Assembly (NCBI GenBank): GCA_009664345.1
Contig: CP043547.1
Location: forward strand, 2,818,709-2,882,708
Reading direction: 5' to 3'
Source: Planctomycetales bacterium 10988
Lineage (GTDB): Bacteria; Planctomycetota; Planctomycetia; Pirellulales; Pb10988
Length of the DNA: 64,000 bases
How positions within the stretch are numbered: position 1 is the first letter of the stretch; every line of letters begins with the position of its first letter. The notes below the pieces were generated by a model. The model searched no databases, was not told the origin of the DNA, and worked only from the letters and a program-made list of their open reading frames with translations. Of the stretch, positions 1,218 to 33,662 are shown in pieces. The position numbers and the translations under genes were made by a program.

Positions 1218-1231
1218 AAAAAGTACTTTTT
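1218..1231. repeat. AAAASYRSTTTT palindromic motif, copy GTAC
   Basis: Fully palindromic copy (A5-GTAC-T5), three bases after the stop codon of the FG-GAP gene and ahead of its terminator hairpin. Confidence 0.6.
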
Positions 1232-1246
1232 ATTAGTAAGAATCAC

Positions 1247-1280
1247 AAGAGATCGTGCGAGTTTCGTGCGGTCTCTTTTT
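1247..1280 (+). terminator. Rho-independent terminator of the FG-GAP gene
   Basis: Fourteen-base stem from 1247-1260 (AAGAGATCGTGCGA) pairing with 1264-1277 through Watson-Crick and three G-T pairs, a GTT loop, and a T-run running to 1280. Confidence 0.8.
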
Positions 1281-1395
1281 CGTGGATGGGCAATCAGTGG
1301 CTCTGGAGATCATGGGCCGAGGGCGATATAATTTTCACTTCGAAGTCAGAGCGTCTATGAGAAAATTCTAAAGAAGAGAAGAGGAGCGGTTTGCC

Positions 1396-2481
1396 ATGGA
1401 CCATGGATTTGCGATCATTGGATGCGGCATGATTGCCCGGTTTCATGCCAAAGCGATTGCCGATTTGCCCAACGCCCGGCTCGTTGCTTGTTATAGTCAG
1501 ACGAAAGCCTCGGCGGATCGCTTCGCAGAAGAAGTCGGATGCAAGGCGTATGGCGATCTCGACGAACTCTTGGCCGATCCCGACGTGACCATCGTTTCGA
1601 TTGGGACTCCGAGCGGGGCTCACATGGAACCGGCGGTGGCCGCTGCAAAAGCCGGGAAGCATGTCATTGTCGAAAAGCCGTTGGAAATCACCTTGGCTCG
1701 TTGCGATGCGATGATTGAAGCTTGCAAAGAAAACAATGTAAAACTCTCGACGATTTTTCCTTCGCGGTTCCATGCTTCCAGCAGGGAGATGAAAAGGGCG
1801 ATGGATCAAGGCCGCTTCGGTCGCGTGACCCTCGGCGATGCGATTGTGAAGTGGTATCGCTCGCAGGAGTATTATGACAGCGGGGCCTGGCGGGGAACGT
1901 GGGAACTCGACGGTGGCGGGGCCTTGATGAATCAAGCGATTCACAGCGTCGATCTATTGGCTTGGCTGATGGGGCCGGTCGATTCGATTCAAGCCTATTG
2001 CGGCTTGCTCGGCCATGAACGGATCGCCGTGGAAGACACCGCCGTGGCGACCTTGCGGTTTAAAAATGGAGCACTCGGCACCATCGAAGCGACGACGACG
2101 GCATACCCCGGCTATCTCAAACGGATTGAAATTCATGGTTCGCACGGGTCGGCGATCATGGAAGAAGAGGACCTGCTCAAGTGGGATTTTGCCGAAAAAG
2201 ATATCCACGACGAACGCATTCTCGAAGCGATGGCCAATCAAGAAAGTTCCGGTGGCGGGGCCAGCGATCCCTCCGCGATTGGCTATCATGGGCACTTGAT
2301 GCAGTTTGAAGATTTGTTGAGGGCGATTGAAGAGGACCGGGCTCCTGCCGTGGATGGCCCCGAAGGACGCCGTTCGGTGGAAATCATCCTCGCCATCTAT
2401 GCCGCCGCGGAAGCTCAAGCCGCCGTCTCTTTGCCCCTCGAAAAAGACCCCGACCTCGCCGCCCGCAAAAAGTCGGTATAA
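1396..2481 (+). CDS. Gfo/Idh/MocA family NAD(P)-dependent oxidoreductase
   Basis: A 361-residue protein with the two-domain layout of the Gfo/Idh/MocA family. An N-terminal Rossmann fold carries the dinucleotide motif IIGCGMIARFHAKAI at residues 6-20. The family's EKP motif (VIVEKPLEI) is near residue 94, and a C-terminal alpha/beta domain follows with the GGGALMNQAIHSVDLLAW segment that lines the substrate pocket (the family H-x-x-D pair). There is no signal peptide, so it is cytoplasmic, unlike the many Tat-exported homologues in Planctomycetes. A GAGGAG Shine-Dalgarno lies just upstream of the ATG. Substrates in the family are mostly sugars and inositols; this one cannot be assigned. It stands alone after the FG-GAP terminator and converges on the next two genes. 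Confidence 0.9.
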   Translation: MDHGFAIIGCGMIARFHAKAIADLPNARLVACYSQTKASADRFAEEVGCKAYGDLDELLADPDVTIVSIGTPSGAHMEPAVAAAKAGKHVIVEKPLEITLARCDAMIEACKENNVKLSTIFPSRFHASSREMKRAMDQGRFGRVTLGDAIVKWYRSQEYYDSGAWRGTWELDGGGALMNQAIHSVDLLAWLMGPVDSIQAYCGLLGHERIAVEDTAVATLRFKNGALGTIEATTTAYPGYLKRIEIHGSHGSAIMEEEDLLKWDFAEKDIHDERILEAMANQESSGGGASDPSAIGYHGHLMQFEDLLRAIEEDRAPAVDGPEGRRSVEIILAIYAAAEAQAAVSLPLEKDPDLAARKKSV

Positions 2482-2518
2482 GGTTGAATTTACTAATTGC
2501 AAAAAGCACTCTTTGAAT

Positions 2519-2932
2519 TTAGATATCACAACGAATATCTAGCACGTATCGCTTGATTGTTTTATCAAATTGAAGTCGAATTGGATTGACCTTCAGATCG
2601 CATTCCTCAGAAAGCCAACCTGCCGTTGCACAAGCAATTCCTTCTTTTTGGAAGTCTGGGAGCCGGAAATCAACATCATGCACTATAAAATATTTACCGC
2701 CAAGAATTTTCTTGGAAGGTGGATAGCGTTGCATAAATAGATCGATTCCTAACTCAATATATTTCCGTAGCATTGGTGAAACATGGTCGGATACGAAGCG
2801 AACGGTTGGAAATGGAGTAAATGCTTCGTGATCCTCTTCGAGAGAAGCCGTTAAATCAACAACAACTCCCCAGGAAGATTGAATGATTCTATAGCGATAA
2901 GTTCTTGGTTGCATTGTATGAAAAGAGTTCAT
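2519..2932 (-). CDS. Hypothetical protein, immunity-like accessory gene
   Basis: Not recognised. It is about 137 residues, cytoplasmic, with no signal peptide or membrane segment, and AT-rich compared with the neighbouring Gfo/Idh gene. Start chosen at the ATG at 2932 because GGAAAAG lies seven bases upstream; an in-frame GTG at 2947 would overlap the end region of the preceding gene. It lies a few bases downstream of the 2952-3521 gene and is almost certainly co-transcribed with it. Pairs of small AT-rich soluble genes like these are often orphan immunity genes of polymorphic toxins, but no toxin is visible here, so this is only a suggestion from context. Confidence 0.55.
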   Translation of the reverse strand: MNSFHTMQPRTYRYRIIQSSWGVVVDLTASLEEDHEAFTPFPTVRFVSDHVSPMLRKYIELGIDLFMQRYPPSKKILGGKYFIVHDVDFRLPDFQKEGIACATAGWLSEECDLKVNPIRLQFDKTIKRYVLDIRCDI

Positions 2933-2951
2933 AATTAGCTTTTCCACAAGT

Positions 2952-3704: not shown

Positions 3705-3730
3705 CCTCTCCCTAATCTTTCCTATTTTTC

Positions 3731-3744: not shown

Positions 3745-3749
3745 ATAGT

Positions 3750-4556
3750 TTAGCCTTCTTCGTTTGAATGTTCATGGAAATGCTCGGTAAGGTGTCCAAC
3801 GTTGGTGGGACCATGATGTTCACTTCCGGCGGCTGTTTCGAAGTAAGCGGAGTACTCATCATGATCATCATCGTAGACGATCGAGAAGACGACTAAAAAT
3901 CGTTGGTAAGTGGTCGCAGGATTGAGTTCATCATTGGCGGCGAAGTGGACGGGAGATTCTTGGATCAGCTTGCCTGGTCCGACTCCGGTGCAGTTGGGAC
4001 CGACACCAAAGATAATATAACGAGTGTTGGCACTATTGTCGGTGAAAGTTCCGTCGGCTTCACGTACTAAATGGCGTTTCAGATTTAATTGGTTCCCTTC
4101 CAACAAATGTTCGGCCAAGTCCAATTCGAGAACGGACGAGTCGGTATCCAATGCACGAGAAACCGTCCCGTAAGGGGCATAGTCAAACGTATTGGTTGCA
4201 CCGGCGACGCCATCGACGAGATACCTCACGCCGATCTCAGCGAGGGCTTCAACTTCATCAGGATCGAGATCAACCTCCGCGGTTTGTGCGATCATTTCGT
4301 CTGAAAGTATGGTCGATTGAGCCTGTGCGTCATCCAGCATCGAATCGTAGGAATCGGGATAGCGAACATTCAATACATAAGAACGCATCCAGGCTTTATT
4401 CATTTCGGAAATAGTATCCGAACATTGAGCCAAATGGGTGCGGTACAGCAGATTCGGCATCACCTGAAGGGCCAAACCTGCCAAAATAACCAAGATCGAT
4501 AAGACGATGACTAGTTCCAATACGGTAAAACCAGCCCGCAATGTTCCCTTTTTCAT
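3750..4556 (-). CDS. Prepilin-like (type II secretion/type IV pilin-like) protein, copy A
   Basis: A 268-residue protein that begins with a class III signal: the short basic leader MKKGTLRAG is followed by FTVLELVIVLSILVILAGLALQ. The G|F cleavage site for prepilin peptidase, the F+1 and the E+5 are all present, so it should be assembled in the inner membrane as a pilin or pseudopilin. The rest is a globular domain with LAQCSDTISEMNKAW and a conserved GVGPNCTGVGPGKLIQESPVHFAAN region, ending in a histidine-rich tail (HHGPTNVGHLTEHFHEHSNEEG) that could bind metal. It lacks the DUF1559 layout common in Planctomycetes. It is a close paralogue of the gene at 4847-5656, with its own promoter and terminator. 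The role, secretion or adhesion, is not decidable here. Confidence 0.82.
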   Translation of the reverse strand: MKKGTLRAGFTVLELVIVLSILVILAGLALQVMPNLLYRTHLAQCSDTISEMNKAWMRSYVLNVRYPDSYDSMLDDAQAQSTILSDEMIAQTAEVDLDPDEVEALAEIGVRYLVDGVAGATNTFDYAPYGTVSRALDTDSSVLELDLAEHLLEGNQLNLKRHLVREADGTFTDNSANTRYIIFGVGPNCTGVGPGKLIQESPVHFAANDELNPATTYQRFLVVFSIVYDDDHDEYSAYFETAAGSEHHGPTNVGHLTEHFHEHSNEEG

Positions 4557-8366: not shown

Positions 8367-8369
8367 GGT

Positions 8370-8423: not shown

Positions 8424-8452
8424 AGTTGCTAATGTGGGTTGGAAGAATAACT

Positions 8453-8476
8453 AAAAACCGCTTTTTGAAAGTTATG
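8453..8476. repeat. Direct repeat with AAAASYRSTTTT motif, copy CCGC
   Basis: A5-CCGC-T5 followed by GAAAGTTATG. The same layout, with GTGG in the centre, is at 9068-9091, so the two copies flank the DUF4303 gene in direct orientation. Confidence 0.7.
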
Positions 8477-9022: not shown

Positions 9023-9067
9023 TTTTAAAAACTCTGGAAATATTATAAAACGATCAGTCTTAATATC

Positions 9068-9091
9068 AAAAAGTGGTTTTTGAAAGTTATG
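9068..9091. repeat. Direct repeat with AAAASYRSTTTT motif, copy GTGG
   Basis: A5-GTGG-T5 followed by GAAAGTTATG, 46 bases upstream of the DUF4303 start codon; partner of 8453-8476. Confidence 0.7.
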
Positions 9092-9110: not shown

Positions 9111-9170
9111 ACAGGGGAGAAAGCTTTCATCCCTTCTCCCCCTCACTCTTCACACCCCGCTCCCCACTCC
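9111..9170. repeat. Right arm of imperfect inverted repeat around the DUF4303 gene
   Basis: CAGGGGAGAA and CTTCACACCC blocks complementary to 8370-8423. It reaches to the stop codon of the next gene. Confidence 0.6.
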
Positions 9171-10579
9171 TAAGCCGCGTGGCTGAGGGAGCCGTTTGAT
9201 TTCATCGGCGATTCGACGGTCTTCGGATGTTGCTGGCCGTCTTGCTTTTGCCAATTCATCATCAGGAGCATTGCGAGCATCATCAGGGCGATGATCGTAT
9301 CCGGCTTGTAAGAGATGACGAGAATCGAAAGTTCCTTGCCCATCAGCCAGCGTTTCGAGGCGATGATCAACACGGTGAAGCTGATCAAGAGATAACGCCG
9401 GAGGACTTGTGGTTCGAGGGCGGTCATCTGTTGGCGGATCAACAAGAAAGCCATCGGCCACATCACGATCATGTGTTGCTTCCAGCACATCGGCGAAAGC
9501 AGGGCACAAAGAAGCGTCACGATCGCCCATTCCGGGGCCATTACATGGCGTGCCTTGCTGTCAGTTTTTTGTTCTTCCGAGTGCGGAAGTCGCCAAGCCG
9601 GGAGCCATTTCCAAGCTAATAGAGCGGCTAGTCCTAGCAAGAAAACTTTGATCAATGTCGAAGAGGTTTCTGGATCGAGGTCCGCAAATTGGACAAAACC
9701 GGGGTGTTCGAGGTGCAGGCGATGATCTTCGGGGAAGTGTTGAAAATAACGAGCCAGCGCCGGTTTAATGCCGAGATTACGCGGGTTCGGAGGTTCGACA
9801 CTGTTGAGGGCCGGGTCTTTGATGGCCATCTCTTTTTCCACACGACCGAACCATTGTTGATTCGCGGCGATCGTCTCTTCCCAACCAAGATGAAAGACCG
9901 GAGAAAGATTCAACACCACCACCCACACGCCCATCGCGGCAGCGGCTTTCCACTGTCTTTTCCAAATTAAAAACGGCAGAAAGAGCAAAGGGGTCGATTT
10001 ATAAACCGTCCCGAGGGCCAGCCAAAAACTTCCGCCAAACCATCGTCCTTGCCAGATCATCCAGCCGCCGATCGAGAGGGCACCGAGCAACAGAATCTGT
10101 AACCCGCATTCATCCAGGTCTCGCAACAGATAAGGGCTGAGCATCCCGGCAGCCGCCAAAGCTGCCACCAAGTTTTGCCGTGGTGTTGCGGGAAACCAGT
10201 CTTCGGCCAATTGGCTCCAAATACGGTAAACAACATATAGGCAGAGAGTCGCTCCAAAGAAGGAGAGCAACTCCGCCCAAGGGAAATTTTCAGGCAGCGC
10301 GGCCAAGAGCCCATTGATGACCATCCGGCCGGGCATATACCAATCGCCGAGGGTGCGATAGATTTCTTGATCTAAAAAGGCCTCGCCATATTGCATATGC
10401 ACGTCGAAGTCATTCGTCCGCAGAAAGACGCTCATGACGAGTTCGACAATGAGAACAATGACCAGCAACGCCAGGGCTCCACGCACCAAATGGTCATGAA
10501 GATACCAAGGTTGTTTTTTGGTTTCTGAGTTGGAAGTGTCAGAAGGTTCGTTCGAAGTGGTCTGCGGGGACTCAGTCAT
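9170..10579 (-). CDS. GT87-like (DUF2029) integral membrane glycosyltransferase
   Basis: A 469-residue polytopic protein. After a polar cytoplasmic N-terminus (residues 1-30) comes a first span (ALALLVIVLIVELVMSVFL). The loop that follows contains TNDFDVHMQYGEAFLDQEIYR, where the D-x-D pair is the expected acidic catalytic site of GT-C enzymes. About nine more hydrophobic spans follow, with YKSTPLLFLPFLIWKRQWKAAAAMG typical of the DUF2029/GT87 family (polyprenol-phosphate-mannose dependent mannosyltransferases). The gene lies 103 bases downstream of a polyprenyl-phosphate sugar transferase gene on the same strand. Together they may make and use a lipid-linked sugar for cell-envelope glycans. 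The family call rests on topology and these motifs. Confidence 0.65.
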   Translation of the reverse strand: MTESPQTTSNEPSDTSNSETKKQPWYLHDHLVRGALALLVIVLIVELVMSVFLRTNDFDVHMQYGEAFLDQEIYRTLGDWYMPGRMVINGLLAALPENFPWAELLSFFGATLCLYVVYRIWSQLAEDWFPATPRQNLVAALAAAGMLSPYLLRDLDECGLQILLLGALSIGGWMIWQGRWFGGSFWLALGTVYKSTPLLFLPFLIWKRQWKAAAAMGVWVVVLNLSPVFHLGWEETIAANQQWFGRVEKEMAIKDPALNSVEPPNPRNLGIKPALARYFQHFPEDHRLHLEHPGFVQFADLDPETSSTLIKVFLLGLAALLAWKWLPAWRLPHSEEQKTDSKARHVMAPEWAIVTLLCALLSPMCWKQHMIVMWPMAFLLIRQQMTALEPQVLRRYLLISFTVLIIASKRWLMGKELSILVISYKPDTIIALMMLAMLLMMNWQKQDGQQHPKTVESPMKSNGSLSHAA

Positions 10580-19830: not shown

Positions 19831-19833
19831 AGT

Positions 19834-19847
19834 AAAAAGTAGTTTTT
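19834..19847. repeat. AAAASYRSTTTT motif, copy GTAG, at the sulfatase start
   Basis: A5-GTAG-T5 only three bases upstream of the chosen ATG of the 18388-19830 sulfatase, occupying the Shine-Dalgarno position. Confidence 0.65.
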
Positions 19848-19868
19848 GAATTATCATAGACAAATCCT

Positions 19869-19881
19869 AAAAGTAGTTTTT
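19869..19881. repeat. AAAASYRSTTTT motif, copy GTAG, second of a pair
   Basis: A4-GTAG-T5, centred about 34 bases from the copy at 19834-19847, directly next to the T-run of the upstream sulfatase's terminator. Confidence 0.65.
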
Positions 19882-19883
19882 AT

Positions 19884-19926
19884 AAAAAGAGCAGACTTCC
19901 CATCAACTTTAGACGAGAAGTCTGCC
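19884..19926 (-). terminator. Terminator of the 19941-21575 sulfatase
   Basis: GCAGACTTC (19891-19899) pairs with GAAGTCTGC (19917-19925); on the minus strand the stem is followed by TCTTTTTATA. Confidence 0.75.
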
Positions 19927-19940: not shown

Positions 19941-21575
19941 TCAATTCTGCTTTTTGTTTTTCTTCTTAGGTTTTTTCTTTCCAAAGAGTTCCGGCGAGGC
20001 AGGGAAAACATGGGTTCGTTCCGCCCAGGCATCGTAGAGAGCGGCCATCTGTTCGACACGTTCGGGATGTTGCTCGGCCAAGTCGTGCAACTCCGTCCGG
20101 TCGGCTTCCATATCATACAGTTCCCAAGGTTGATTGCGTAACGAAACGATTTTCCATTTGCCTTGGCGAACGGCACGATTCTCTTCATGGTTGAAGAAAA
20201 GTGGCTGTTCACGGTCTAAAGAGCTTCCTTCAAGGACCGGCCGCAAGCTGATCCCTTCCATCGGCTCAATGGCGTGGCCGTTCCATTCGGTCGGATATGC
20301 CGCTTCCGTGTAGTCGACCACGGTGGCCATGATGTCGATCAAGTGGCTGGGTTGATGGTTCCGCTGGCCGACTTGTTCCTTGGCGATTCCTTGCGGCCAA
20401 TGAGCGATGAGCGGCGTGGCGATTCCCCCTTCATGGACATAATGCTTGAACTTTCGAAAAGGCGTATTGTTAAGCGTTGCCCAGTTTTGACCGAGGAAAA
20501 CATTTGACTTCGGACCGCCGGGGTTCTTACCTTCGTATCGGCCATCGGGACCGGATTCGGCATTGCCCCCGTTGTCGCTGAGGAACAAAATCAAGGTATT
20601 GTTGAGTACGTTGCGGTCTTTCAGACCCTCGACAAGCGTTCCTACACTCTGATCCATCGTCGAGATCATCGCCGCATAAATCGACATGATATGGTCAAAG
20701 CGGTCGCGTTTCTCCTCGGGAACGTTTCGCCACATCGGAGTATTCTTTGGAACACGACTTTTGCCCCACTGATCCTCTAGCAAGCCGATTTCAAGTTGCT
20801 TTTGGTAACGCTGTTCCCGGAGGCGATTCCAGCCTGTCAGATACTTGCCGCGGAATTTGTCGATCTCTTCTTGAGGAGCCATCAAGGGAAAGTGCGGCGC
20901 GCAGTGAGCCAAATAGAGGAAGAAAGGTTTCTCTTCGTCCAGGGCTTCATCGATGAACTTCAGCCCCCATTCCGTCCAAAGATTCGTGCCATACCAGGGT
21001 GGATTGAAGGTCGGATCGTCGAGCGGTTTTTCTTCGCCATTAAGATAAAGTCTCGCGCCCCCTTTGCTTCCCCCTTGACTGGAAAAGAAAATCCCCCCGC
21101 GAGCGAGATTCAAACTTCGTGAAAACCCTCGGCTTTGCGGGGTGCAACCTCGATTGAAACCCAAGTGCCACTTACCGGTGATGGCAGTGAAGTAGCCTGC
21201 TTGTTGCAGAACCTCGGCCATCGTGACACTCGAGTCAGCGATCTTGGCTTGATAACCAGGATGACCAGGAACGGCCAAGCCGTCGAGGTGTCCCATACCT
21301 GCTTGATGCGGATAATGCCCGGTCAAAAGCGATGCCCGCGTCGGACTGCAACGCCCGGTATTATAAAACTGGGTGAAATGCACGCCGTTTTTCGCCAAAG
21401 CATCGAGATTCGGCGTCGGAATCTCACTGCCATAGCAGCCGATGTCCGAAAAGCCCATATCATCGACCAAGATGACAATCACATTAGGTCGGTCTTTGGC
21501 TTCTGTCGTCGCAACTAAATTTAGACAAAGGAGCGAGAGGCTCAAAGCGAAAAGCACTTTTGATATTCTATTCAT
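19941..21575 (-). CDS. Secreted arylsulfatase
   Basis: A 544-residue arylsulfatase A-type enzyme. A signal peptide (MNRISKVLFALSLSLLCLNLVATTEA) leads into NVIVILVDDMGFSDIGCYGSEI, which carries the first calcium ligands (DD). The formylglycine motif CSPTR in TGRCSPTRASLLTGHYPHQAG is canonical, and GKWHLG, LFLSDNGG and a C-terminal ALS-type domain follow. The tail is lysine-rich (KKKPKKKNKKQN). Hydrolyses sulfate esters in the periplasm or outside. Codons 6-9 carry an AAAASYRSTTTT motif, and another lies 29 bases before the start. The GH43-like gene is 48 bases upstream on the same strand, suggesting shared transcription. A hairpin terminator follows. Confidence 0.94.
   Translation of the reverse strand: MNRISKVLFALSLSLLCLNLVATTEAKDRPNVIVILVDDMGFSDIGCYGSEIPTPNLDALAKNGVHFTQFYNTGRCSPTRASLLTGHYPHQAGMGHLDGLAVPGHPGYQAKIADSSVTMAEVLQQAGYFTAITGKWHLGFNRGCTPQSRGFSRSLNLARGGIFFSSQGGSKGGARLYLNGEEKPLDDPTFNPPWYGTNLWTEWGLKFIDEALDEEKPFFLYLAHCAPHFPLMAPQEEIDKFRGKYLTGWNRLREQRYQKQLEIGLLEDQWGKSRVPKNTPMWRNVPEEKRDRFDHIMSIYAAMISTMDQSVGTLVEGLKDRNVLNNTLILFLSDNGGNAESGPDGRYEGKNPGGPKSNVFLGQNWATLNNTPFRKFKHYVHEGGIATPLIAHWPQGIAKEQVGQRNHQPSHLIDIMATVVDYTEAAYPTEWNGHAIEPMEGISLRPVLEGSSLDREQPLFFNHEENRAVRQGKWKIVSLRNQPWELYDMEADRTELHDLAEQHPERVEQMAALYDAWAERTHVFPASPELFGKKKPKKKNKKQN
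21550..21561. repeat. AAAASYRSTTTT motif, copy GCAC, in signal-peptide codons
   Basis: A4-GCAC-T4 inside codons 6-9 of the arylsulfatase signal peptide, encoding K-V-L-F on the minus strand. Confidence 0.6.
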
Positions 21576-21603
21576 ATTGCCATTGATTCCTTAGATTGAA
21601 TGC

Positions 21604-21617
21604 AAAAAACACTTTTT
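21604..21617. repeat. Near copy of the AAAASYRSTTTT motif (ACAC centre)
   Basis: A5-ACAC-T5, five bases past the GH43-like stop codon and about 55 bases from the copy at 21550-21561. The first centre position is A instead of G or C. Confidence 0.45.
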
Positions 21618-21622
21618 AATAA

Positions 21623-22819
21623 CTACCCGTTCGTGATCGGCTCGAAGGATTGGGCTTCATCGGGACCGGGAGAGGCATAGTCGGGATCCTTCGCCCGAAT
21701 GAAAATTTCGCCATTGTTCTGCACGTCAACATCGAGAGGGACAATGGTGACCCCTTGTTGATTGATGGTTTGAGCCGTTTCGCTCAGGTCTTTGCCTCGG
21801 GCTGCTTTGCGTGAAAGCGGCGGGATATTCCCATTGTAAAACGCGGTACACCACCAGCGACCGTTTTTATCTTGAAACGGCGTTCCATGACCGAGGAAGC
21901 GACCGGCGAACTTGCGAGGGCCATACGGTCCGGTGATTTTGTCCGCCGTGCAGTAGTAAAGATTGTAGGAACCTTGCCGCATTTGATCGGTCGACCAACC
22001 AGTTCCAAAGAGGACATACTTTCCTTCGATCTTGTAAATCAAACAGCCTTCGTGCCCCATCTTGCGGCCCGAGGGGCCGATGGAAGTAGGCTTCTTGGCG
22101 ACGGCGGATAAGTCCGCAGTGAGCGGGGCAATTTTAGTTGCCGCCCAAATCAACCAGACGGTGCCATCGTCGTCTTGAAAGAGCGAAGGGTCGTGACGCC
22201 GGGCAATCGAAGTCCCCAGCGGATGTTTGAAAGGCCCCTTGAGTTCCGCCCCTTCGGTCACGGCCAGATTGGCCCCTTTCACCGGAGCGGGACTCGTGTG
22301 GACCAGAACCCAACGGCCATCAATGAAATGAACTTCCGGGGCCCATAGCCGCCACTGGTCTTGCGGGACTTCGTCAAACGCTTGTGGCTGGGCCTCAAAC
22401 CAAACGCCATCCTTCAAGGTAAACGGCGTGCCGAGGCTCTCCCACTTGATCAAGTCGCGGCTTCGCCAAGCCTGCATCTTCCAGCCGACAATACTTTCAT
22501 CACCCAAGCCGGTATTATAAGGATCGCTTTGCTCGCGAGGTTCCTCCGGCAGCGGGGTCGTTCCTGTCAGATAATAAAAACCGTCCGGGCCCAAGGTTAT
22601 ATAAGGATCGCGAATCCAACCGGCTTTGATGAAGAGAGCACGTTTGTGTTGTTTCAGTCCTTTGGCGATCTTTTGAGGAGGCATCGCCTTAGCAGTCGCC
22701 GGAGGCTCAGCCGCAACAGAACTCTCGATCGGTAAAAAGAGACAAGCGGCAAAGAGGGCAAAACTTGTCAATAGTATTGGATGCCTTGAAGCAAGATTGG
22801 TGAGAAAAGTACGAATCAT
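21623..22819 (-). CDS. Secreted glycoside hydrolase family 43-like protein
   Basis: About 398 residues from the ATG at 22819 (an earlier in-frame start at 22879 is less likely). The signal sequence ILLTSFALFAACLFLPIESSVAA is followed by a five-bladed beta-propeller typical of clan GH-F. Visible GH43 hallmarks are WIRDPYITLGPDGFYYLTGT (the catalytic base Asp in R-D-P), W-R-S-R-D-L-I-K-W-E-S-L-G, LWAPEVHFIDGRWVLVHTSP (pKa-modulating residues follow) and GPFKHPLGTSIARRHDPSLFQDDDGTVWLIW. Members act on arabinose- or xylose-containing or galactan chains. It probably leads a unit with the arylsulfatase downstream, consistent with removal of side chains from a sulfated polysaccharide. Confidence 0.87.
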   Translation of the reverse strand: MIRTFLTNLASRHPILLTSFALFAACLFLPIESSVAAEPPATAKAMPPQKIAKGLKQHKRALFIKAGWIRDPYITLGPDGFYYLTGTTPLPEEPREQSDPYNTGLGDESIVGWKMQAWRSRDLIKWESLGTPFTLKDGVWFEAQPQAFDEVPQDQWRLWAPEVHFIDGRWVLVHTSPAPVKGANLAVTEGAELKGPFKHPLGTSIARRHDPSLFQDDDGTVWLIWAATKIAPLTADLSAVAKKPTSIGPSGRKMGHEGCLIYKIEGKYVLFGTGWSTDQMRQGSYNLYYCTADKITGPYGPRKFAGRFLGHGTPFQDKNGRWWCTAFYNGNIPPLSRKAARGKDLSETAQTINQQGVTIVPLDVDVQNNGEIFIRAKDPDYASPGPDEAQSFEPITNG

Positions 22820-23044
22820 GAGGGCCTTTCTTCGGTCAAACGAAAGCGGGGAAAGTAAGGAAGGCAAGCGATTGTGCAACCTTGCAGGATACCGGACTCG
22901 GCCTGGTGAGAACAGAGAACAGGGTTAGAAATTCCGCGAGTGGCGAATCTTTACCGGGGAGAACCGAGGGCTTATGGTGAAAGGTTCGCGTTTCGATCTG
23001 CCGCTTTTTGCTGATTTCCCCGAGTACCTGATTGTGTGGAACTT

Positions 23045-24463
23045 ATGAAAACTACTTTTCGCATCTCGCCCTGGTTACTGGTTTTACTATTTCTGCCTTT
23101 GTTGGGGATCTTGGGTTTCCAAATGCAGAACACTATTCCCAATACGCAATCGGCTTTGGTTGGTGATGGCGAGGCCGATGATACAGCCGCCTTGCAATCA
23201 TTGATCGATTCCGCCGAAGGAGCCATCGAACTGCCGCGAGGAATCTACCGGATCACAAAACCTCTACTCATTGACTTAGACCAGATCGGCGTGACGTCGC
23301 TTTCCGGTGGTGGCGTGGCGACGTTGAAGATGGATGGTCCCGGTCCGGCGATTCGCTTGCGAGGAACACATTTTAAATCAGCGGCCCCGCGAACTTTTGA
23401 AGAGAGAGTTTGGCAACGGCAGCGGATGCCGCTCATCGATGGCTTGGCGATTATCGGCGATCACCCCGAAGCTGACGGAATTGAAGCGGCCGGCACGATG
23501 CAACTCACGATGACCCGATTGCATATCAAAGGCGTACGGCACGGCATTCATTTGATTGAAAACAATCGGAACATCATTATCAGCGATTGCCATCTCTATG
23601 AAAATCAAGGCTGTGGGCTACTGTTGGATGACGTGAACTTGCATCAAATCAACGTCAATGGCTGTCATATTAGTTACAACGCCGGGGGTGGAATCGTTTC
23701 GCGAAAGGGAAATGTTCGCAACCTGCATATCACCGGATGTGACTTGGAAAGCAACATGAGCGACGCCACCGAGCCGACCGCGAATGTCTTGATCGATTGC
23801 CGCGAAAGTGAACACGGCACCGGAGAGGTCGCCATCACCGGATGCACGATTCAGCACAATAGCACTTCGCCGGACTCCGCGAACATTCGCATCATGGGGC
23901 AGACGCAGCTTGCAAAGACGCAGGCCTTCCAGCAAGAGGGGAATGTCACGATCACTGGGAATGTCTTCAGCGACGTGCGGGTGAATGTCCATCTGGACAA
24001 CTGCCGCGGCGTGACCTTGACCGGGAATACTTTTTGGATGGGTTACGAGCATGATCTCTTGATCGAAAACAGCTCGAACATCGTGATTGGCCCGAATAAT
24101 CTTGACCGCAATCCCCGCTATAACTACGGAACAACCCAAGATGCGAACAACGGCGTCCTCATACAGCATTGCGAAGATTGTACCATCCAAGGTCTGCATA
24201 TCACTCGAGTTTGGCGGAAGGAAGCGGCTTTGATTTTGCGAAATTGCCGTCGAATGCATCTTGCTAATTGTACGCTTCTCGACAATGACAACTGCGGTGT
24301 CTTGCTGGAAGGTGTCACGCAAAGCCGCATCGAGGGACTTTTTATTCGCGATGATCGGCCGGAGACAACTTCGGTTCCCTTCAAGATGATCGACAGTCAA
24401 CGCAACAAAATCGAGCGAGCATTGGAGGAAAGGATCGACCGATTAGAAGTGAAAAGCGACTGA
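23045..24463 (+). CDS. Exported right-handed parallel beta-helix protein
   Basis: A 472-residue protein with an N-terminal hydrophobic segment (WLLVLLFLPLLGILGF) that could be a signal peptide or membrane anchor. It is followed by DGEADDTAALQSLIDSA, the cap of pectate-lyase-3 type helices. The body is a right-handed beta-helix built from about 22-residue coils with N-x-x-I-T-G-C or I-x-x-N-x-F patterns (NLHITGCDLESN, VTITGNVFSD, VTLTGNTFWMG). The fold is shared by polysaccharide lyases and tail-spike-like proteins; no catalytic residues can be named. The ATG at 23045 overlaps an AAAASYRSTTTT motif in codons 2-5. It is divergent from the GH43-like gene, so both may share a control region. Confidence 0.8.
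   Translation: MKTTFRISPWLLVLLFLPLLGILGFQMQNTIPNTQSALVGDGEADDTAALQSLIDSAEGAIELPRGIYRITKPLLIDLDQIGVTSLSGGGVATLKMDGPGPAIRLRGTHFKSAAPRTFEERVWQRQRMPLIDGLAIIGDHPEADGIEAAGTMQLTMTRLHIKGVRHGIHLIENNRNIIISDCHLYENQGCGLLLDDVNLHQINVNGCHISYNAGGGIVSRKGNVRNLHITGCDLESNMSDATEPTANVLIDCRESEHGTGEVAITGCTIQHNSTSPDSANIRIMGQTQLAKTQAFQQEGNVTITGNVFSDVRVNVHLDNCRGVTLTGNTFWMGYEHDLLIENSSNIVIGPNNLDRNPRYNYGTTQDANNGVLIQHCEDCTIQGLHITRVWRKEAALILRNCRRMHLANCTLLDNDNCGVLLEGVTQSRIEGLFIRDDRPETTSVPFKMIDSQRNKIERALEERIDRLEVKSD
23048..23059. repeat. AAAASYRSTTTT motif, copy CTAC, in first codons
   Basis: A4-CTAC-T4 begins directly after the ATG of the beta-helix gene and encodes K-T-T-F. Confidence 0.6.
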
Positions 24464-24596: not shown

Positions 24597-25361
24597 ATGT
24601 CGATCATTACAGACGCACACCGCCAGCAGTATGTGGATGAAGGGTATTTCATCGTCGAGAAGGCAATCTCGGACGAACACTTGCAAATTTTGCGGGAGTC
24701 CTGCGATTATCTCATCGACGTCATGCATCAAGAGATGGACCGGCAAGGGACCGATCATCTGCATATCAGCCATCGCGGCAAGCGGTATCACATTGCCAAA
24801 CAATACGAGCAAGCCCCGCGATTGAGCCAATATGTCTTTAGTGAATTGATGGCGGAGGTCTGCCGGGCGACGATCGGACCGGAGGCGTTTCTCTTTTACG
24901 ATCAATATGTCGCCAAGGCCGCCGAGCAGGGGATTTCCTTCTCCTGGCATCAAGACTCGGGCTATCTGGATTTTACCCACGATCCTTATGTTACCGTCTG
25001 GGCGGCGGTCGATGATATGACCGAAGAGAACGGCACCGCCTATGTTTTACCTTATTCGAAAGTCGGCATCCGCACCCGCGTGGAACATATTCGGCAGCCG
25101 GACACGGGCGATAAGGTCGGTTACTTCGGTTCGGAACTCGGCGTGCCGGGGATCGTGCCGGCGGGAAGCCTTATTGTTTTTAGCTCGTACACGTTTCATC
25201 GCAGTGGGGCAAATACGACCGACAAGATGCGGCGGGCCTATGTCACGCAATATTCCCCGCACCGCATTTATCGCCCTGGCACCGAGGATTTAATGCATCT
25301 CGGCGTTCCGTTTTTGCAAGGCGGAAAGATCGTCTCCCCCGTTTCTTCTTCCCCCCAGTGA
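24597..25361 (+). CDS. Phytanoyl-CoA dioxygenase (PhyH) family protein
   Basis: A 254-residue cytoplasmic Fe(II)/2-oxoglutarate oxygenase of the PhyH family. The iron-binding H-x-D is in [16 protein letters not shown] (near residue 118), the distal His is in [26 protein letters not shown] (near residue 203), and the later Arg binds 2-oxoglutarate. The N-terminal [19 protein letters not shown] is typical of the family. AAAGGAAAATCG precedes the start. Planctomycetes carry many such genes near sulfatases. The substrate is unknown; the next gene begins eight bases later, so the two are probably translated from one message. Confidence 0.9.
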
Positions 25362-25369
25362 GGCCAACC

Positions 25370-26299
25370 ATGCAACGCTCCCGACGCGATTTTCTGAAAC
25401 AAGGCACCCTCGCCACCGCGGCGATGTTGACTTCGAGCCGATGGCTCCAAGCGGCAAAAGCAAAAAGTGGTTTTGAGCTGAAGTATATTGTTGGCTCTTG
25501 CATGTATGGCACCACGAAGCTAAGCGAGATTCTGCCGGAAGTCCGCAAGACCGGGGCGACCGCCATTGACATTTGGCCCAAACGCCACGGCGATCAACGC
25601 GAACAACTCGAAGCGATGGGCGAAGAGGCCTTTGCTCAACTCTTGGCCGAACACGAGGTCCAACTTGGTTGCATCACGCAATACCCGCTGGGTCCGTTTG
25701 GCTTGCAAGAAGAAATGCAACTGGCCGAGCGATTCAACTGCCCGACCATGGTCACCGGAGGCAAAGGGGAAAGAGGCCTTTCGGGTACCGCTTTAAAGCA
25801 GGAAATTAAAAAATTCATCGAAAAGATGAAGCCGCACCTCGAAGTCGCTGAAGCCACTGGCGTCACGATCGCCATTGAAAATCATGGCAACTCCCTGGTG
25901 GAATCGCCGGATTCCTTGAAGTGGCTGGCGGAATTTCGTCCTTCGAAGAACTTGGGAATCGCCTTGGCCCCGTATCACTTGGAACAAGATAGCCGGTTCC
26001 TCGCCCAATTGATCCGCGACCTTGGAGATAGTATCGAGATGTTCTATGCCTGGGAACATGGCATGGGCTGCATGGAAAAACTCCCCAAAGAGCAGGAGCT
26101 TCTGCAAATGCCCGGCCGGGGAGAATTGGAATTCGGACCGCTGTTGGATGCCTTGGCGGAGATCAAATATTCAGGCTGGACGGAAATTTTCATGCATCCG
26201 GTTCCGCGTGGGATTCCGATTCTTGAACCGACCTCCGCAGTGACGGCTGAAATCAATCGGGCACGAAAGTACTTAGCGAGTTGTATGCCCAACGCTTAA
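25370..26299 (+). CDS. Tat-exported sugar phosphate isomerase/epimerase-like TIM-barrel protein
   Basis: A 309-residue protein starting at the ATG at 25370 (GAGG four bases before the spacer). The twin-arginine leader RRDFLKQGTLATAAML is followed by a xylose-isomerase-like TIM barrel: ATAIDIWPKRHGDQREQL, VQLGCITQYPLGPFG, VTIAIENHGNSLVESPDSL with the metal-ligand E, and WTEIFMHPVPRG with the late His. These fit the AP-endonuclease-2 superfamily of sugar isomerases. It sits between the dioxygenase and a sulfatase in one direction with short gaps. An AAAASYRSTTTT motif falls in the codons right after the leader. Substrate unknown. Confidence 0.85.
   Translation: MQRSRRDFLKQGTLATAAMLTSSRWLQAAKAKSGFELKYIVGSCMYGTTKLSEILPEVRKTGATAIDIWPKRHGDQREQLEAMGEEAFAQLLAEHEVQLGCITQYPLGPFGLQEEMQLAERFNCPTMVTGGKGERGLSGTALKQEIKKFIEKMKPHLEVAEATGVTIAIENHGNSLVESPDSLKWLAEFRPSKNLGIALAPYHLEQDSRFLAQLIRDLGDSIEMFYAWEHGMGCMEKLPKEQELLQMPGRGELEFGPLLDALAEIKYSGWTEIFMHPVPRGIPILEPTSAVTAEINRARKYLASCMPNA
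25462..25474. repeat. AAAASYRSTTTT motif, copy GTGG, after the Tat leader
   Basis: A5-GTGG-T4 in coding sequence about 93 bases from the start codon of the isomerase-like gene, encoding A-K-S-G-F-E. Confidence 0.55.
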
Positions 26300-26339
26300 C
26301 TTGCCTTCTTTCAAACTTTCCCAAGCTCAAGATCATGTC

Positions 26340-27761
26340 ATGCCTTCTCCAATCCTAAAAACACTTTTGGTATTCTGTGCGGTCCTCACTTTGGTTCCTT
26401 CTTCGCCAGCGAAGGAGCCAGAGGAGAGGCCGACGAATATTGTGTTGTTCTTGGCCGATGACCTGGGGTATGCGGACCTCGGCAGTTATGGGGCTGAGGG
26501 CTTTTCCACCCCGCACTTGGATCGTTTGGCGGAAAAGGGACTTCGTTTCACCGACTTTTATGTCGCGGCGGCGGTCTGTTCGGCATCGCGGGCGGCTCTG
26601 CTGACCGGGCGTTATCCACTTCGCACGAGTATCACCGGGGTCGTCAGTGCCAATCGCAAAGAAGGTATCCCGGCGGAGGAAATTCTCATCTCCGAGATGT
26701 TGAAAGAGCAAGGGTACGCCACCGGGATTTTTGGCAAGTGGCATCTTGGCAATGTGCCGAAGCTCTGGCCGGCGGCCAATGGCTTTGATGAATGGTTCGG
26801 CACCATCGGTTCGAATGATATGGGCAAAGGCCGTCCTTCACTGGAACAGCGGCGTCTCGGCAAGGCCGGTGTCGAACTGGTCGATCAAGATCAGGTCGTC
26901 GAAATCAATCCCGATCAACGACTCTTGACCAAGCGGTATACCGATCGAGCGATTGACTTCATCAAGCGAAATCAAGACGATCCGTTCTTCGTTTATATTC
27001 CATTTAATATGCCGCATACGCCGCTTTTTGCCAGCAAGGACTTCCGCAACTCCAGCGAACGGGGATTGTATGGCGATGTGGTCCAAGAGATCGATGCCTC
27101 CGTCGGTCGCGTGGTGCAAACGTTGGAAACGTTGAAGCTCGACAAAAACACGCTCGTTCTCTTTACTTCGGATAACGGGCCTTGGCTGATCTTTGGCGAT
27201 CATGGCGGCTCCGCGGCTCCGCTGAGTGGGGGCAAGAAGCAAACTCTCGAAGGCGGAATGCGGGTCGCTTGTGTAGCTTATTGGCCGGGGAAGATTCCCG
27301 CAGGTTCGGTTGTTTCGGAACTGGTGACTTCCATGGACTTTCTGCCGACGATCGCCAACCTCGCCGGGGCACCGCTTCCCAAGAAGCAACTCGATGGCGA
27401 CGATCTCACCGAACTTCTCTTTCATCCGAAGTCCGAATCGCCATTCGGCGCGGATCGAGAGCTTCCCCGCTACTTGCTCTATTATTGGGACGAGGAATTG
27501 CAGGCCATTCGGGTGGGAGATTGGAAACTCCGGCTGGCTCATATTGATACCCAAGCCCCGGACCCAGACAAGATCGGAAACGGCGGCATTCGTGGGGAAA
27601 TTCATCTTGAGGAGCGTTCGCTAGCCCTCTTTAATTTGGTGGAAGACCCCGCCGAGCGAAAGAATCTCGCCGAAGAATATCCGGAGATCGTTGAATCCCT
27701 CCAAAATTTCTTGACTCAACTACGGTCAGAGGGGCGACTTCCGCAAAATCTGCATCGATAA
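26340..27761 (+). CDS. Secreted arylsulfatase
   Basis: A 473-residue sulfatase. The ATG at 26340 gives a signal peptide (MPSPILKTLLVFCAVLTLVP); the frame is open to a TTG at 26301. The catalytic motif is CSASR in AAVCSASRAALLTGRYP, a permitted C-x-A/P-x-R version for formylglycine formation. NIVLFLADDLGYADLGSYG supplies calcium ligands, GKWHLGN and LFTSDNGPW follow, and the C-terminal part ends in the ALFNLVEDPAERKNLAEEYPE segment of arylsulfatase A-like enzymes. It is 40 bases downstream of the isomerase-like gene. A variant of the AAAASYRSTTTT motif sits in codons 6-9. Confidence 0.94.
   Translation: MPSPILKTLLVFCAVLTLVPSSPAKEPEERPTNIVLFLADDLGYADLGSYGAEGFSTPHLDRLAEKGLRFTDFYVAAAVCSASRAALLTGRYPLRTSITGVVSANRKEGIPAEEILISEMLKEQGYATGIFGKWHLGNVPKLWPAANGFDEWFGTIGSNDMGKGRPSLEQRRLGKAGVELVDQDQVVEINPDQRLLTKRYTDRAIDFIKRNQDDPFFVYIPFNMPHTPLFASKDFRNSSERGLYGDVVQEIDASVGRVVQTLETLKLDKNTLVLFTSDNGPWLIFGDHGGSAAPLSGGKKQTLEGGMRVACVAYWPGKIPAGSVVSELVTSMDFLPTIANLAGAPLPKKQLDGDDLTELLFHPKSESPFGADRELPRYLLYYWDEELQAIRVGDWKLRLAHIDTQAPDPDKIGNGGIRGEIHLEERSLALFNLVEDPAERKNLAEEYPEIVESLQNFLTQLRSEGRLPQNLHR
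26357..26368. repeat. Near copy of the AAAASYRSTTTT motif (ACAC centre) in signal-peptide codons
   Basis: A4-ACAC-T4, encoding K-T-L-L of the sulfatase leader. It shares the ACAC centre with 21604-21617. Confidence 0.45.
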
Positions 27762-31857: not shown

Positions 31858-32001
31858 GCTGTTTATTTGTCAGCCGAACAGCAGTACGGTAAAATCAAAA
31901 CCCCTTGCTTTCGAGAAGGTTTTCTCTCGGATCGAGGGGTTTCTTTATTGAATCTCAACCTAAGCAAGATTTGTTTTTCCCTCCTAAGAAAGTATTTCCT
32001 C

Positions 32002-33546
32002 ATGCAGTATCCTCCTTCGAATGGCCGGGCGGCGAGCGCTTGGCTTCTTCCTTTCAAAACATGTTTAACGCTCAGCGCCATACTCGCAGGTGTTTTTCTA
32101 TTTTCTGAAAAGGCCGCTGCGGACGATCGCCCGAACTTTATCCTCTTTATTGCGGATGATGTCAGTTGGAATGACCTCAGTTGTTACGGCAGCCCGAACG
32201 CCCGCACGCCGGAAATCGACGCAATCGCCGCGAATGGAATGCAGTTTGAAGAGGCCTATCTGACCGCGAGCAGTTGCAGCCCGAGTCGTTCGAGCATCAT
32301 CACCGGGCGTTATCCGCATAACAATGGGGAAGCCGCCGAACTGCACCGCCCGATTTCTGCCCACATTCCCGCGTTTCCAGGTGTCTTGCGAGACAAAGGT
32401 TATTACACCGCGTTGGCCGGAAAAGATCACATGACTTGGAAGAAGCCGGAATCCAAGCGAAATGTTCCGACCGAACCGTTTGTGAAAAAGTACGGCACCT
32501 CGGTCCCTGGCAACAACGGTGGCGAAGGCTATTGGCTGGACGCTTTGCATGATTGTCCCAAGGATCAACCCTTCTTCCTGTGGCTTGCATCGACCGATGC
32601 CCACCGCGATTGGGGAGCCGAGCTGCAATGGGATGAAGAAGAATATGGCCCCCGCTGCGAACCCGGCGATGTCGACGTTCCGCCTTACTTGGTCGATACG
32701 TTGTGGACGCGAATTGACTTGGCCTGTTATTACAATGAAGTCCGGCGTTTTGATCACTTCGTCGGCAAGACGGTCAAGGAACTCGAAAAGATGAACCTGG
32801 CGGACAATACGTATTTGATCATTTTGGCCGACAATGGGCGACCGTTTCCTCGGGCCAAGACCCGCCTTCACGACAGCGGAATGAAGACCTATTTCATCAT
32901 GGCCGGGCCGAAAGTGCAATCCGGTTCAAAGACCTCTGCTTTAACCAGTGTCATCGACATTGCCCCAACGGTGATGGAACTGGCCGGAGTCAAAGAGCCG
33001 AAAACCTTGCAAGGCCGCAGCCTTTTGCCAGTGCTCCAAGACCCAAGCCAATCGATTCGCCCCTTGGCTTTCTCCGAACATAACTGGCATGACTACGAAG
33101 CCCATGGGCGTTCGGTCCGCGATGGGCGTTATCTGTTGATTCGCAACTTCCGCCCCAACCTCGCTTGGCAAGGCCCCGCCGATTCGGTCCGTTCGGTCTC
33201 TTTCCGCGATCTGGTGGAAGCCAGCTTGAACCGCCGTAAAAAGCTGACACTTGCCCAAAAGGATGTCCTTTTGGCCCCGCGTCCGGAAGTCGAACTTTAT
33301 GACACTTCCAATGACCCTTATCAAACCGACAACTTGGCCGGTTCCGCGGAGTTCGCGGATATCGAACAACGCTTAACCCAGGCCCTCGATCATTGGATGG
33401 AAGCCACCGACGATTCCGTTCCCGAGGTCGTTTCCCCCGATCAATTCGACCGCGAAACGGGCAATCGGATTTCACCTCGTGTTGATTACGTCGATCCTCC
33501 AGGTGCCGATCGAGATGCGGATCGGAATAATAGCGAAGGCCTGTAA
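32002..33546 (+). CDS. Secreted sulfatase, heparan N-sulfatase-like
   Basis: A 514-residue sulfatase. The ATG at 32002 yields the export signal WLLPFKTCLTLSAILAGVFLFS; an open frame continues upstream to 31867 but overlaps the spacing after the DUF1552 gene and lacks a leader. The catalytic motif is CSPSR within ASSCSPSRSSIITGRYPHN. NFILFIADDVSWNDLSCYG provides calcium ligands, and AGKDHMTWKKPE and LADNGRPFPRAKTRLHDSGMKT give the sulfamidase-type pattern (heparan N-sulfatase/S1_8 branch). Probable substrate is a sulfated or sulfamated polysaccharide. It ends the co-directional run begun at 24597. The gap to the metalloprotease terminator holds a dispersed repeat and an AAAASYRSTTTT copy. Confidence 0.9.
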   Translation: MQYPPSNGRAASAWLLPFKTCLTLSAILAGVFLFSEKAAADDRPNFILFIADDVSWNDLSCYGSPNARTPEIDAIAANGMQFEEAYLTASSCSPSRSSIITGRYPHNNGEAAELHRPISAHIPAFPGVLRDKGYYTALAGKDHMTWKKPESKRNVPTEPFVKKYGTSVPGNNGGEGYWLDALHDCPKDQPFFLWLASTDAHRDWGAELQWDEEEYGPRCEPGDVDVPPYLVDTLWTRIDLACYYNEVRRFDHFVGKTVKELEKMNLADNTYLIILADNGRPFPRAKTRLHDSGMKTYFIMAGPKVQSGSKTSALTSVIDIAPTVMELAGVKEPKTLQGRSLLPVLQDPSQSIRPLAFSEHNWHDYEAHGRSVRDGRYLLIRNFRPNLAWQGPADSVRSVSFRDLVEASLNRRKKLTLAQKDVLLAPRPEVELYDTSNDPYQTDNLAGSAEFADIEQRLTQALDHWMEATDDSVPEVVSPDQFDRETGNRISPRVDYVDPPGADRDADRNNSEGL

Positions 33547-33577
33547 ATTAATGGAGATAGATCGTTAAAGAAGTGTT

Positions 33578-33614
33578 ACGAATCGTGTTGGGTTTTCAGT
33601 GTTCGGTGTTCGGT
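33578..33614. repeat. Dispersed GTGTTCGG repeat, copy 2
   Basis: Matches 7128-7164 at 36 of 37 positions; located 32 bases past the sulfatase stop codon. Confidence 0.85.
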
Positions 33615-33649
33615 GGCTTGAGGTGAATATCGAATCGAAGGTGAATGCG

Positions 33650-33662
33650 AAAACTGCTTTTT
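33650..33662. repeat. AAAASYRSTTTT motif, copy CTGC
   Basis: A4-CTGC-T5 between the dispersed repeat and the bidirectional terminator, about 100 bases past the sulfatase stop codon. Confidence 0.6.

What the first reader, a model, noticed from the sequence alone, without database searches (positions are those of the whole stretch)
1218..33662. A dispersed palindromic motif AAAASYRSTTTT marks gene starts and ends of secreted-protein genes
Exact matches to A4-[GC][CT][AG][GC]-T4 found by reading: 1219, 3732, 8454, 9069, 19835, 19869, 21550, 23048, 25463, 33650 and 45712. Two near copies have an ACAC centre (21605, 26357) and there are degenerate forms at 2501 and 18380. On a simple random model an A4-N4-T4 frame occurs about once per window, and one in sixteen centres would fit SYRS, so more than ten exact hits is a large excess. 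Several copies extend asymmetrically to TTTTTGAAA. Copies lie at three kinds of place: just past stop codons (1218, 3731, 8453, 21604), at start codons or in the first signal-peptide codons (19834, 21550, 23048, 26357), and doubled between the sulfatase genes (19834/19869, 21550/21604). Ten of eleven exact copies are in the first 34 kb. It may be an operator for a regulator of the secreted-enzyme island, or a highly iterated genome palindrome. I do not know a described match.
Basis: partly seen in the sequence, partly recalled or inferred. Interest (0 to 1): 0.78.

Follow-up and report, generated by a model that had tools for sequence, protein, structure and literature searches.

The report
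Thousandfold DNA palindrome marking gene ends
This bacterium's chromosome carries roughly a thousand copies of one short symmetric DNA motif, found at this density in no other genome searched, that looks like the landing site of an unknown paired protein and lies most densely just behind genes, so it may mark where genes end.

Summary
The motif is real. It is not an island operator: the 6.65-Mb chromosome holds 791 copies against 20 for the reversed pattern. No other genome searched (441 of the phylum) comes near this excess; a stricter 16-mer gives 255 here, at most 5 in 395 others of the order.

The site is a 26-bp dyad with independently varying halves, no hairpin covariation and no significant strand bias. 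Close pairs favour 25-26 bp spacing (22 of 39). Density peaks 10-20 bp past stop codons (3.65/kb): 0.66/kb in convergent gaps, 0.06 in divergent gaps, 0.05 in coding DNA; 40% of copies are nevertheless coding. Four coding copies checked arose without insertion of a motif-sized piece.

Best reading: sites of an unidentified, cooperative, dimeric DNA-binding protein marking transcription-unit ends. Function is inferred. The main rival is an uptake-sequence-like signal, since Neisseria uptake sequences share the placement profile. I did not find the binder.

The parts
1212..1237 (.). dyad site, centre 10 bp past the stop of gene 27-1214(+)
   Evidence: core exact; matrix 28.6 bits
2495..2520 (.). 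degenerate site, centre about 26 bp past the stop of gene 1396-2481(+)
   Evidence: matrix 25.0 bits
3725..3750 (.). dyad site in a convergent gap, centre 12 bp past the stop of gene 3750-4556(-)
8447..8472 (.). dyad site in the convergent gap between 8366(+) and 8483(-)
9062..9087 (.). dyad site in a tandem gap, centre about 95 bp past the stop of 9170-10579(-)
   Evidence: 29.2 bits
18373..18398 (.). degenerate site overlapping the stop of sulfatase 18388-19863(-)
   Evidence: matrix 19.7 bits
18458..18483 (.). weaker degenerate site inside the same sulfatase gene
   Evidence: matrix 18.7 bits
19708..19733 (.). weaker degenerate site inside the same sulfatase gene
   Evidence: matrix 15.9 bits
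19828..19853 (.). dyad site near the start of sulfatase 18388-19863(-), start codon uncertain; 34 bp from the next copy
19862..19887 (.). dyad site just beyond the terminator-like hairpin 19926-19890 that follows the stop of sulfatase 19941-21575(-)
21543..21568 (.). dyad site in the first codons (signal-peptide-like) of sulfatase 19941-21575(-)
21598..21623 (.). ACAC-centre site, centre 12 bp past the stop of the GH43 gene 21623-22879(-)
   Evidence: 20.2 bits
23041..23066 (.). dyad site in the first codons of the beta-helix protein gene 23036-24463(+); the only window copy my caller put in a divergent gap
25456..25481 (.). dyad site inside the TIM-barrel isomerase-like gene 25358-26299(+)
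26350..26375 (.). ACAC-centre site in the signal-peptide-like start of sulfatase 26301-27761(+)
   Evidence: 18.3 bits
33643..33668 (.). dyad site in the convergent gap between 33546(+) and 33750(-)
43858..43883 (.). weaker degenerate site inside ORF 43503-44417(+)
   Evidence: matrix 17.7 bits
45705..45730 (.). site inside the right terminal inverted repeat of an IS5-like element (about 44844-45737); other copies of this end carry it too

Best explanation
AAAASYRSTTTT is the core of a 26-bp two-fold symmetric binding site, about aaWtNYAAAAA-SYRS-TTTTTRNaWtt, for one dimeric DNA-binding protein of this lineage. Roughly a thousand sites dot the chromosome. Neighbouring dimers pack side by side every 25-26 bp, so one footprint is about one site, and they probably bind cooperatively. 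Arrays of 2-4 sites sit directly behind stop codons, often between convergent genes. Shown: symmetry, independent halves, spacing rule, 3'-end placement, restriction to this genome among those searched, and, for four coding copies in two genes, no motif-sized insertion. Inferred: that a protein binds, that it is a dimer, and that its job is to mark or insulate transcription-unit ends (holding back read-through or opposing polymerase, or anchoring DNA where positive supercoils gather) and so to organise the nucleoid. The binder is unidentified.
For: 791 copies vs 20 reversed control; 19-fold preference for SYRS over other centres. Logo of 174 non-duplicate copies: A/T 92% at +-10.5 (one helical turn from the dyad), Y 92% at -7.5, A 63% at -6.5, little beyond 13 bp. 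At no variable position are arms complementary more often than chance; they are less often so at +-1.5 (p=0.0005) and +-6.5 (p=0.0075), a weak half going with a strong half; the four core A/T pairs are fixed by the search pattern and so untested. Asymmetric centres show no significant orientation bias (tandem 20:12, coding 14:18). Of 39 exact pairs 13-43 bp apart, 18 are at 25 and 4 at 26 bp; control 0; P about 3e-15 for 18 at one spacing. Matrix sites agree (13 and 5). Density past stops falls from 3.65/kb at 10-20 bp to 0.17/kb at 200-300 bp; upstream of divergent starts 0-0.35/kb. Convergent 0.66, tandem 0.39, divergent 0.06, coding 0.05 per kb. Of 17 fetched loci with a 25/26-bp array, 10 lie in convergent gaps (two of them against 16S rRNA), 6 in tandem gaps, 1 in an IS3-like remnant. 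Genes with a 3' copy (109 of 1015) have higher codon score (p=0.02) and GC3 (p=9e-6).
Against: No binder found; no expression or binding data. 74 of 184 sampled copies are in coding DNA with no obvious link to transcript ends. Part of the placement is composition: A4-nonSYRS-T4 words have nearly the same profile (39.7% coding, 11.6% convergent, 6.8% divergent of 146). Half of them (75) are themselves high-scoring variants of the site; for the remaining 71 the convergent:divergent split is 5:7 against 22:5 for the motif (p=0.02), but against all 146 the difference is not significant (17:10, p=0.22). Copies coexist with intrinsic terminators: convergent 20 of 43 gene ends with a site vs 74 of 161 without (p=1); tandem 14 of 75 vs 145 of 564 (p=0.20). 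Neither 23S-5S end has a site in about 1.1 kb. Intragenic copies are denser in genes of lower codon score (11.6 and 17.0 per 100 kb in the two lowest quintiles, 4.9 in the highest; direct comparison of scores p=0.06), as tolerance alone would predict. Uptake sequences have the same placement profile.
Confidence: 0.5

Rival explanations
1. An uptake-type signal: the motif accumulates because DNA carrying it is preferentially taken up and recombined, as with Neisseria DUS or Haemophilus USS; 3' ends are where it does least harm.
For: Roughly a thousand copies, lineage-specific, and a placement profile like N. meningitidis uptake sequences: tail-to-tail 375 copies in 268 regions, head-to-head 104 in 270, intragenic 635 of 1874 (PMC1852404 Table 4, passages), against 22 of 153 convergent gaps with a copy, 5 of 145 divergent gaps, and 40% coding here.
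Against: Known DUS/USS are asymmetric; this is a dyad with independent halves and a 25-26-bp packing rule. DUS often form terminator hairpins; here 9 of 49 copies overlap a predicted hairpin. Density is lower (one per 8.4 kb). Coding copies are denser in genes of lower codon score. Uptake itself was not testable here.
Confidence: 0.15
2. A sequence-specific roadblock terminator (stoperator-like): a bound dimer stops RNA polymerase at gene ends.
For: Peak just past stops and in convergent gaps; arrays behind stops; mycobacteriophage stoperators are a precedent (PMC9283540, passages).
Against: No complementarity with intrinsic terminators; intragenic copies would be harmful; stoperators are asymmetric and oriented with transcription, this is neither.
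Confidence: 0.15
3. A selfish or repair-generated short repeat (REP- or MITE-like) spreading by insertion.
For: Arrays inside three IS3-like remnants share a place in orfB, one copy lacking exactly 26 bp; the motif lies in an IS5-like terminal repeat present at six other sampled places.
Against: Outside those elements and a few duplicated loci, matches between the flanks of 184 copies are short, up to about 75 bp; four coding copies checked lack a motif-sized insertion; 40% coding is unlike REPs (REP comparison recalled).
Confidence: 0.07
4. RNA hairpin or intrinsic terminator element.
For: Palindrome just past stops.
Against: No compensatory excess at any variable position and no significant strand bias; many copies in coding DNA.
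Confidence: 0.03
5. Operator of a regulator of the sulfatase/secreted-enzyme island.
For: Local density in the first 34 kb of the window; 5' copies favour secretion-like genes.
Against: Genome-wide, promoter-poor, no secretion bias at 3' copies.
Confidence: 0.02

Closest known systems
DNA uptake sequences (Neisseria DUS, Pasteurellaceae USS; PMC1852404, passages)
   Same: Lineage-specific, about 10^3 copies, enriched tail-to-tail, poor head-to-head, a third or more intragenic
   Different: Asymmetric, often in terminator hairpins; no 25-bp packing rule seen in the passages
Spaced 3'-end motifs reported in Bradyrhizobium and Polaromonas (PMC5217627, passages)
   Same: Genome-specific spaced motifs near 3' ends; in Polaromonas 125 copies, 101 intergenic, 34 between convergent genes
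   Different: Other sequences and spacers (22-23 bp between the halves); the Polaromonas one has fewer copies; proposed there as termination-related
Noc-binding sequences / parS (ParB-Noc family; PMC7383237, passages)
   Same: Short DNA sites of a dimeric protein; Noc sites dispersed over the chromosome (dispersal recalled)
   Different: Tens of sites (recalled), different sequence. This genome has one ParB whose aligned HTH lacks Noc's Q and R at the two base-reading positions
HIP1 of cyanobacteria (PMC4390886, abstract start in the listing)
   Same: Highly iterated palindrome with lineage-specific abundance
   Different: 8-mer linked there to methyltransferases; no gene-end placement or array rule known to me (recalled)
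GapR (PMC8360656, passages)
   Same: Accumulates downstream of transcribed genes and between convergent genes
   Different: Reads positive supercoiling, not a fixed dyad; I did not search this genome for GapR
Stoperators of cluster A mycobacteriophages (PMC9283540, passages)
   Same: Repressor sites in short intergenic spaces
   Different: 13-bp asymmetric sites bound by a monomer, more than twenty per phage, oriented with transcription
REP/BIME elements (recalled)
   Same: Short palindromes at 3' ends
   Different: Form hairpins and are extragenic; this shows no arm covariation and is 40% coding

Membership tests
Highly iterated palindrome (HIP-like) | Large genome-wide excess of a palindromic word | tested here: met
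   791 vs 20 control
Highly iterated palindrome (HIP-like) | Link to a DNA methyltransferase | not tested
   none
DNA uptake sequence | Asymmetric core | tested here: not met
   symmetric site, no significant strand bias
DNA uptake sequence | Tail-to-tail enriched placement and about 10^3 copies | tested here: met
   compared
DNA uptake sequence | Stimulates uptake | not testable with these tools
   needs a transformation assay
RNA hairpin / intrinsic terminator | Compensatory changes in the stem | tested here: not met
   (variable positions only)
parS/Noc sites bound by ParB family | A ParB-family protein whose site is this motif | tested here: inconclusive
   one ParB; HTH resembles parS binders; two near-parS 14 kb apart; no canonical parS in the 30 kb held around parB
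Lrp/AsnC-type nucleoid protein sites | AsnC-family protein encoded | tested here: not met
   0 matches in the own genome, control rings in 11 of 14
REP/MITE element | Arises by insertion | tested here: inconclusive
   four coding copies in two genes without a motif-sized insertion; but an array sits inside orfB of IS3-like remnants
Stoperator | Site orientation follows transcription | tested here: not met

The most novel reading that the evidence does not exclude
A bacterial chromosome-wide boundary system: a lineage-specific dimer coats arrays of 25-bp sites at gene ends, working like an insulator that separates neighbouring transcription units and loops or anchors the nucleoid, with new sites evolving even inside conserved coding sequence.
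Probability: 0.25. Interest if true: 0.9.

Novelty: new variant of a known kind. Interest (0 to 1): 0.62.

Why it matters
A DNA site with roughly a thousand chromosomal copies appears to have arisen in one planctomycete lineage. If a protein binds it, this is a natural experiment in how a nucleoid or boundary system evolves, and arrays placed right behind stop codons make bacterial transcription-unit insulation directly testable. If instead it is an uptake signal, it would be the first palindromic one known to me and would imply natural transformation in this group. The motif alone is enough bait to find the protein.

Tried and rejected
Secreted-island operator: not supported. Hairpin or terminator element: not supported. 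Substitute for intrinsic terminators: no relation found. ParB as binder: judged unlikely, not excluded. The own genome has no parS at <=1 mismatch of the 16-mer, while 5 of the 9 relatives in that call do; no canonical parS lies in the 30 kb held around parB, while 5 of 7 relatives' parB loci have one. That first suggested a switched ParB, but two GTTTCCCGTGAAAC sites lie 14 kb apart at 5.31 Mb and the HTH looks canonical. A four-site group at 879567-879697, about 5.6 kb upstream of parA, is therefore probably coincidence. Lrp/AsnC: absent. Phage origin: the one spaced pair found in viral contigs is in 28% GC DNA and looks like chance. Similar iterated palindromes in two other genomes of the order (about 200 kb each): none of like strength. 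Origin-terminus gradient: none clear; GC skew too weak to place the origin. An autoregulated binder gene beside dense arrays: none recognised among the 30 proteins scanned. Eight divergent-gap copies at matrix >=14 in the sample were not followed to gene products. Literature: the searches listed no paper that I recognise as describing this motif; most subscription papers are not held.

Limits: gene calls are from my own codon-score caller, which tends to trim signal peptides, so 5' distances are less reliable than 3' ones. Positional statistics rest on 80 stretches of 20 kb plus the window (1.664 Mb, 25% of the genome). Matrix and spacing counts include a few duplicated loci (16S pair, IS copies); class counts were repeated without duplicates (177 of 184). 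The matrix was trained on exact copies of the same sample.
Full report
Observation. The two ACAC-centre copies and both degenerate copies are also real. The window lies in a single-contig genome of 6,649,480 bases. The best homologues of one of its proteins are in MAGs labelled Pirellulales or other Planctomycetota, and no row of the same genus or family appears. Genome-wide there are 791 copies; the reversed pattern, of the same composition, has 20. In 1.664 Mb of this genome (80 stretches of 20 kb plus the window) there are 184 copies with SYRS centres and 146 with the other 240 centres, a 19-fold difference per centre; the reversed control has 5.

Distribution among genomes. With the 12-mer I searched 56 other genomes of the order (0-20 copies, controls 0-36) and 391 others of the phylum, six of them the same (maximum 96, where the control has 126; the largest excess I see is 25 vs 4 in G068): 441 distinct other genomes by handle. 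With YAAAAASYRSTTTTTR the own genome has 255 (control 1) and 395 other genomes of the order have 0-5. In the 80 contigs (1.32 Mb) two places reach 14 bits on the matrix. Two genomes of the order, about 200 kb each, show no comparable iterated palindrome of another sequence.

Anatomy. The logo of 174 non-duplicate copies extends to about 13 bp on either side of the dyad, with a sharp A/T preference at 10.5 bp, one helical turn out, a pyrimidine at -7.5 and A at -6.5. That logo pools both strands; copies oriented with the upstream gene show the same positions conserved on both flanks (113 gene-site pairs). At no variable position are the arms complementary more often than chance; at 1.5 and 6.5 bp from the dyad they are significantly less so, as expected if total affinity is what is kept. 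The four core A/T pairs are fixed by the search and say nothing. This speaks against a hairpin and for a two-fold symmetric protein. Orientation of asymmetric centres to the gene is not significantly biased. Pairs of exact copies 13-43 bp apart number 39 (control 0): 18 at 25 bp, 4 at 26 bp, two closer (18 and 20 bp), 15 scattered from 31 to 43 bp. Three loci are triples with 25-26-bp steps. A site every 25-26 bp fits a footprint of one whole site with neighbours touching. The matrix finds 265 sites at 16 bits against 4 for the reversed matrix in the sample, which extrapolates to roughly a thousand per genome.

Placement. With a home-made gene caller (1124 genes, 80% coding), the 184 copies fall 74 in coding DNA, 75 in tandem gaps, 22 in convergent, 5 in divergent gaps and 8 at stretch ends. 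Per kb, after removing duplicates: convergent 0.66, tandem 0.39, divergent 0.06, coding 0.05; convergent versus divergent p=3e-8. Controls are mixed. T4N4A4 words lean the other way (about 5 convergent, 13 divergent of 120; p=5e-4). A4-nonSYRS-T4 words lean the same way (11.6% convergent, 6.8% divergent of 146); half of them are high-scoring variants of the site, the other 71 split 5 convergent to 7 divergent (p=0.02 against the motif), and all 146 together do not differ significantly (17:10, p=0.22). So base composition explains part of the preference for gaps. Measured from the stop codon in contiguous non-coding DNA the density is 1.72, 3.65, 2.04, 1.63, 1.42, 1.17, 0.58, 0.39, 0.17 per kb from 0-10 to 200-300 bp. 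Among 17 fetched loci with a 25/26-bp array, 8 are in gaps between convergent protein genes, 2 between a gene and a 16S rRNA gene read towards it, 6 in tandem gaps and 1 in an IS3-like remnant; in 15 of the 16 outside the IS the nearest core lies within about 35 bp of a stop. These loci were chosen because they hold pairs. Copies lie on either side of predicted terminator hairpins (18 before, 22 beyond, 9 overlapping of 49) and are independent of terminators. A 16S rRNA gene (L210) has a pair 234-270 bp beyond its 3' end, past a terminator-like hairpin read by eye; L209 shares this 2.4-kb stretch at 99.96% identity, so the two are one event. Neither of the two 23S-5S units has a site in the 1.1 kb held behind it. 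Genes with a 3' copy have a higher codon score (p=0.02) and GC3 (p=9e-6); intragenic copies are denser in genes of lower codon score.

Origin of copies. In the Pnkp-like gene (L093; three copies, two inside the alignment shown) one copy encodes KNHFW where PDB 4drf has KNHIW, without a gap, and the other lies in a stretch aligned without a gap at the copy. In the amidohydrolase (L225) the two copies lie beside gaps of at most two residues. These four copies therefore did not come by inserting a motif-sized piece; the KNHFW one looks like a substitution. Mobile elements are the exception. An IS5-like element (window about 44844-45737) carries a copy in its right terminal repeat, present at six other sampled places. 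Three IS3-like remnants share an array of 3-4 units in orfB, one copy lacking exactly 26 bp; that about 40 bp of orfB were replaced is inferred from recalled IS3 sequences.

Mechanism. Shown: symmetry, spacing, placement, restriction to this genome. Inferred from these: a dimer, side-by-side packing, and a role at transcription-unit ends. The placement resembles where GapR reports positive supercoiling, downstream of transcribed genes and between convergent ones (PMC8360656, passages), and resembles Neisseria uptake sequences (PMC1852404, passages with Table 4). The uptake reading is the rival I could not exclude; the dyad and the 25-26-bp rule speak against it. Genome-specific spaced motifs near 3' ends have been listed in other bacteria (PMC5217627, passages), with other sequences. 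AsnC/Lrp proteins are absent. The single ParB looks like a parS-binder by alignment (base-reading positions from PMC7383237, passages), with possible parS at 5.31 Mb. I did not find the binder.

Verdict. A real, strong, lineage-specific system of roughly a thousand symmetric DNA sites, wrongly tied to the sulfatase island but rightly suspected as a highly iterated palindrome. The literature searches made listed no description of it that I recognise.

Noticed in passing
44844-45737: IS5-like element (DDE_Tnp_1) whose right terminal inverted repeat holds an exact copy of the motif; the left repeat does not; six other sampled places share this end
   Followed up: partly
L223:4473-5382, L228, L229: Three IS3-like remnants share a 3-4-unit array of the motif inside orfB, one lacking exactly one 26-bp unit
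   Followed up: partly
L257 (parAB, 885-887 kb) and L273/L274 (5.31 Mb): No canonical parS near parAB, unlike 5 of 7 relatives' parB loci; two GTTTCCCGTGAAAC sites 14 kb apart, far from parAB, may be the real parS
   Followed up: partly
L215:4791-6122: XendoU endoribonuclease gene with a weak lamin-tail-like match, with motif sites upstream, inside and downstream
   Followed up: no
L093:3013-5184: Bacterial Pnkp-like (RNA repair) gene with three motif copies inside it
   Followed up: partly
genome 0-0.6 Mb versus 0.66-1.1 Mb: Motif density differs several-fold between large chromosome regions, unexplained
   Followed up: no
L220:4093-6399: TPR-repeat protein gene with four intragenic copies in an otherwise motif-poor region
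   Followed up: no
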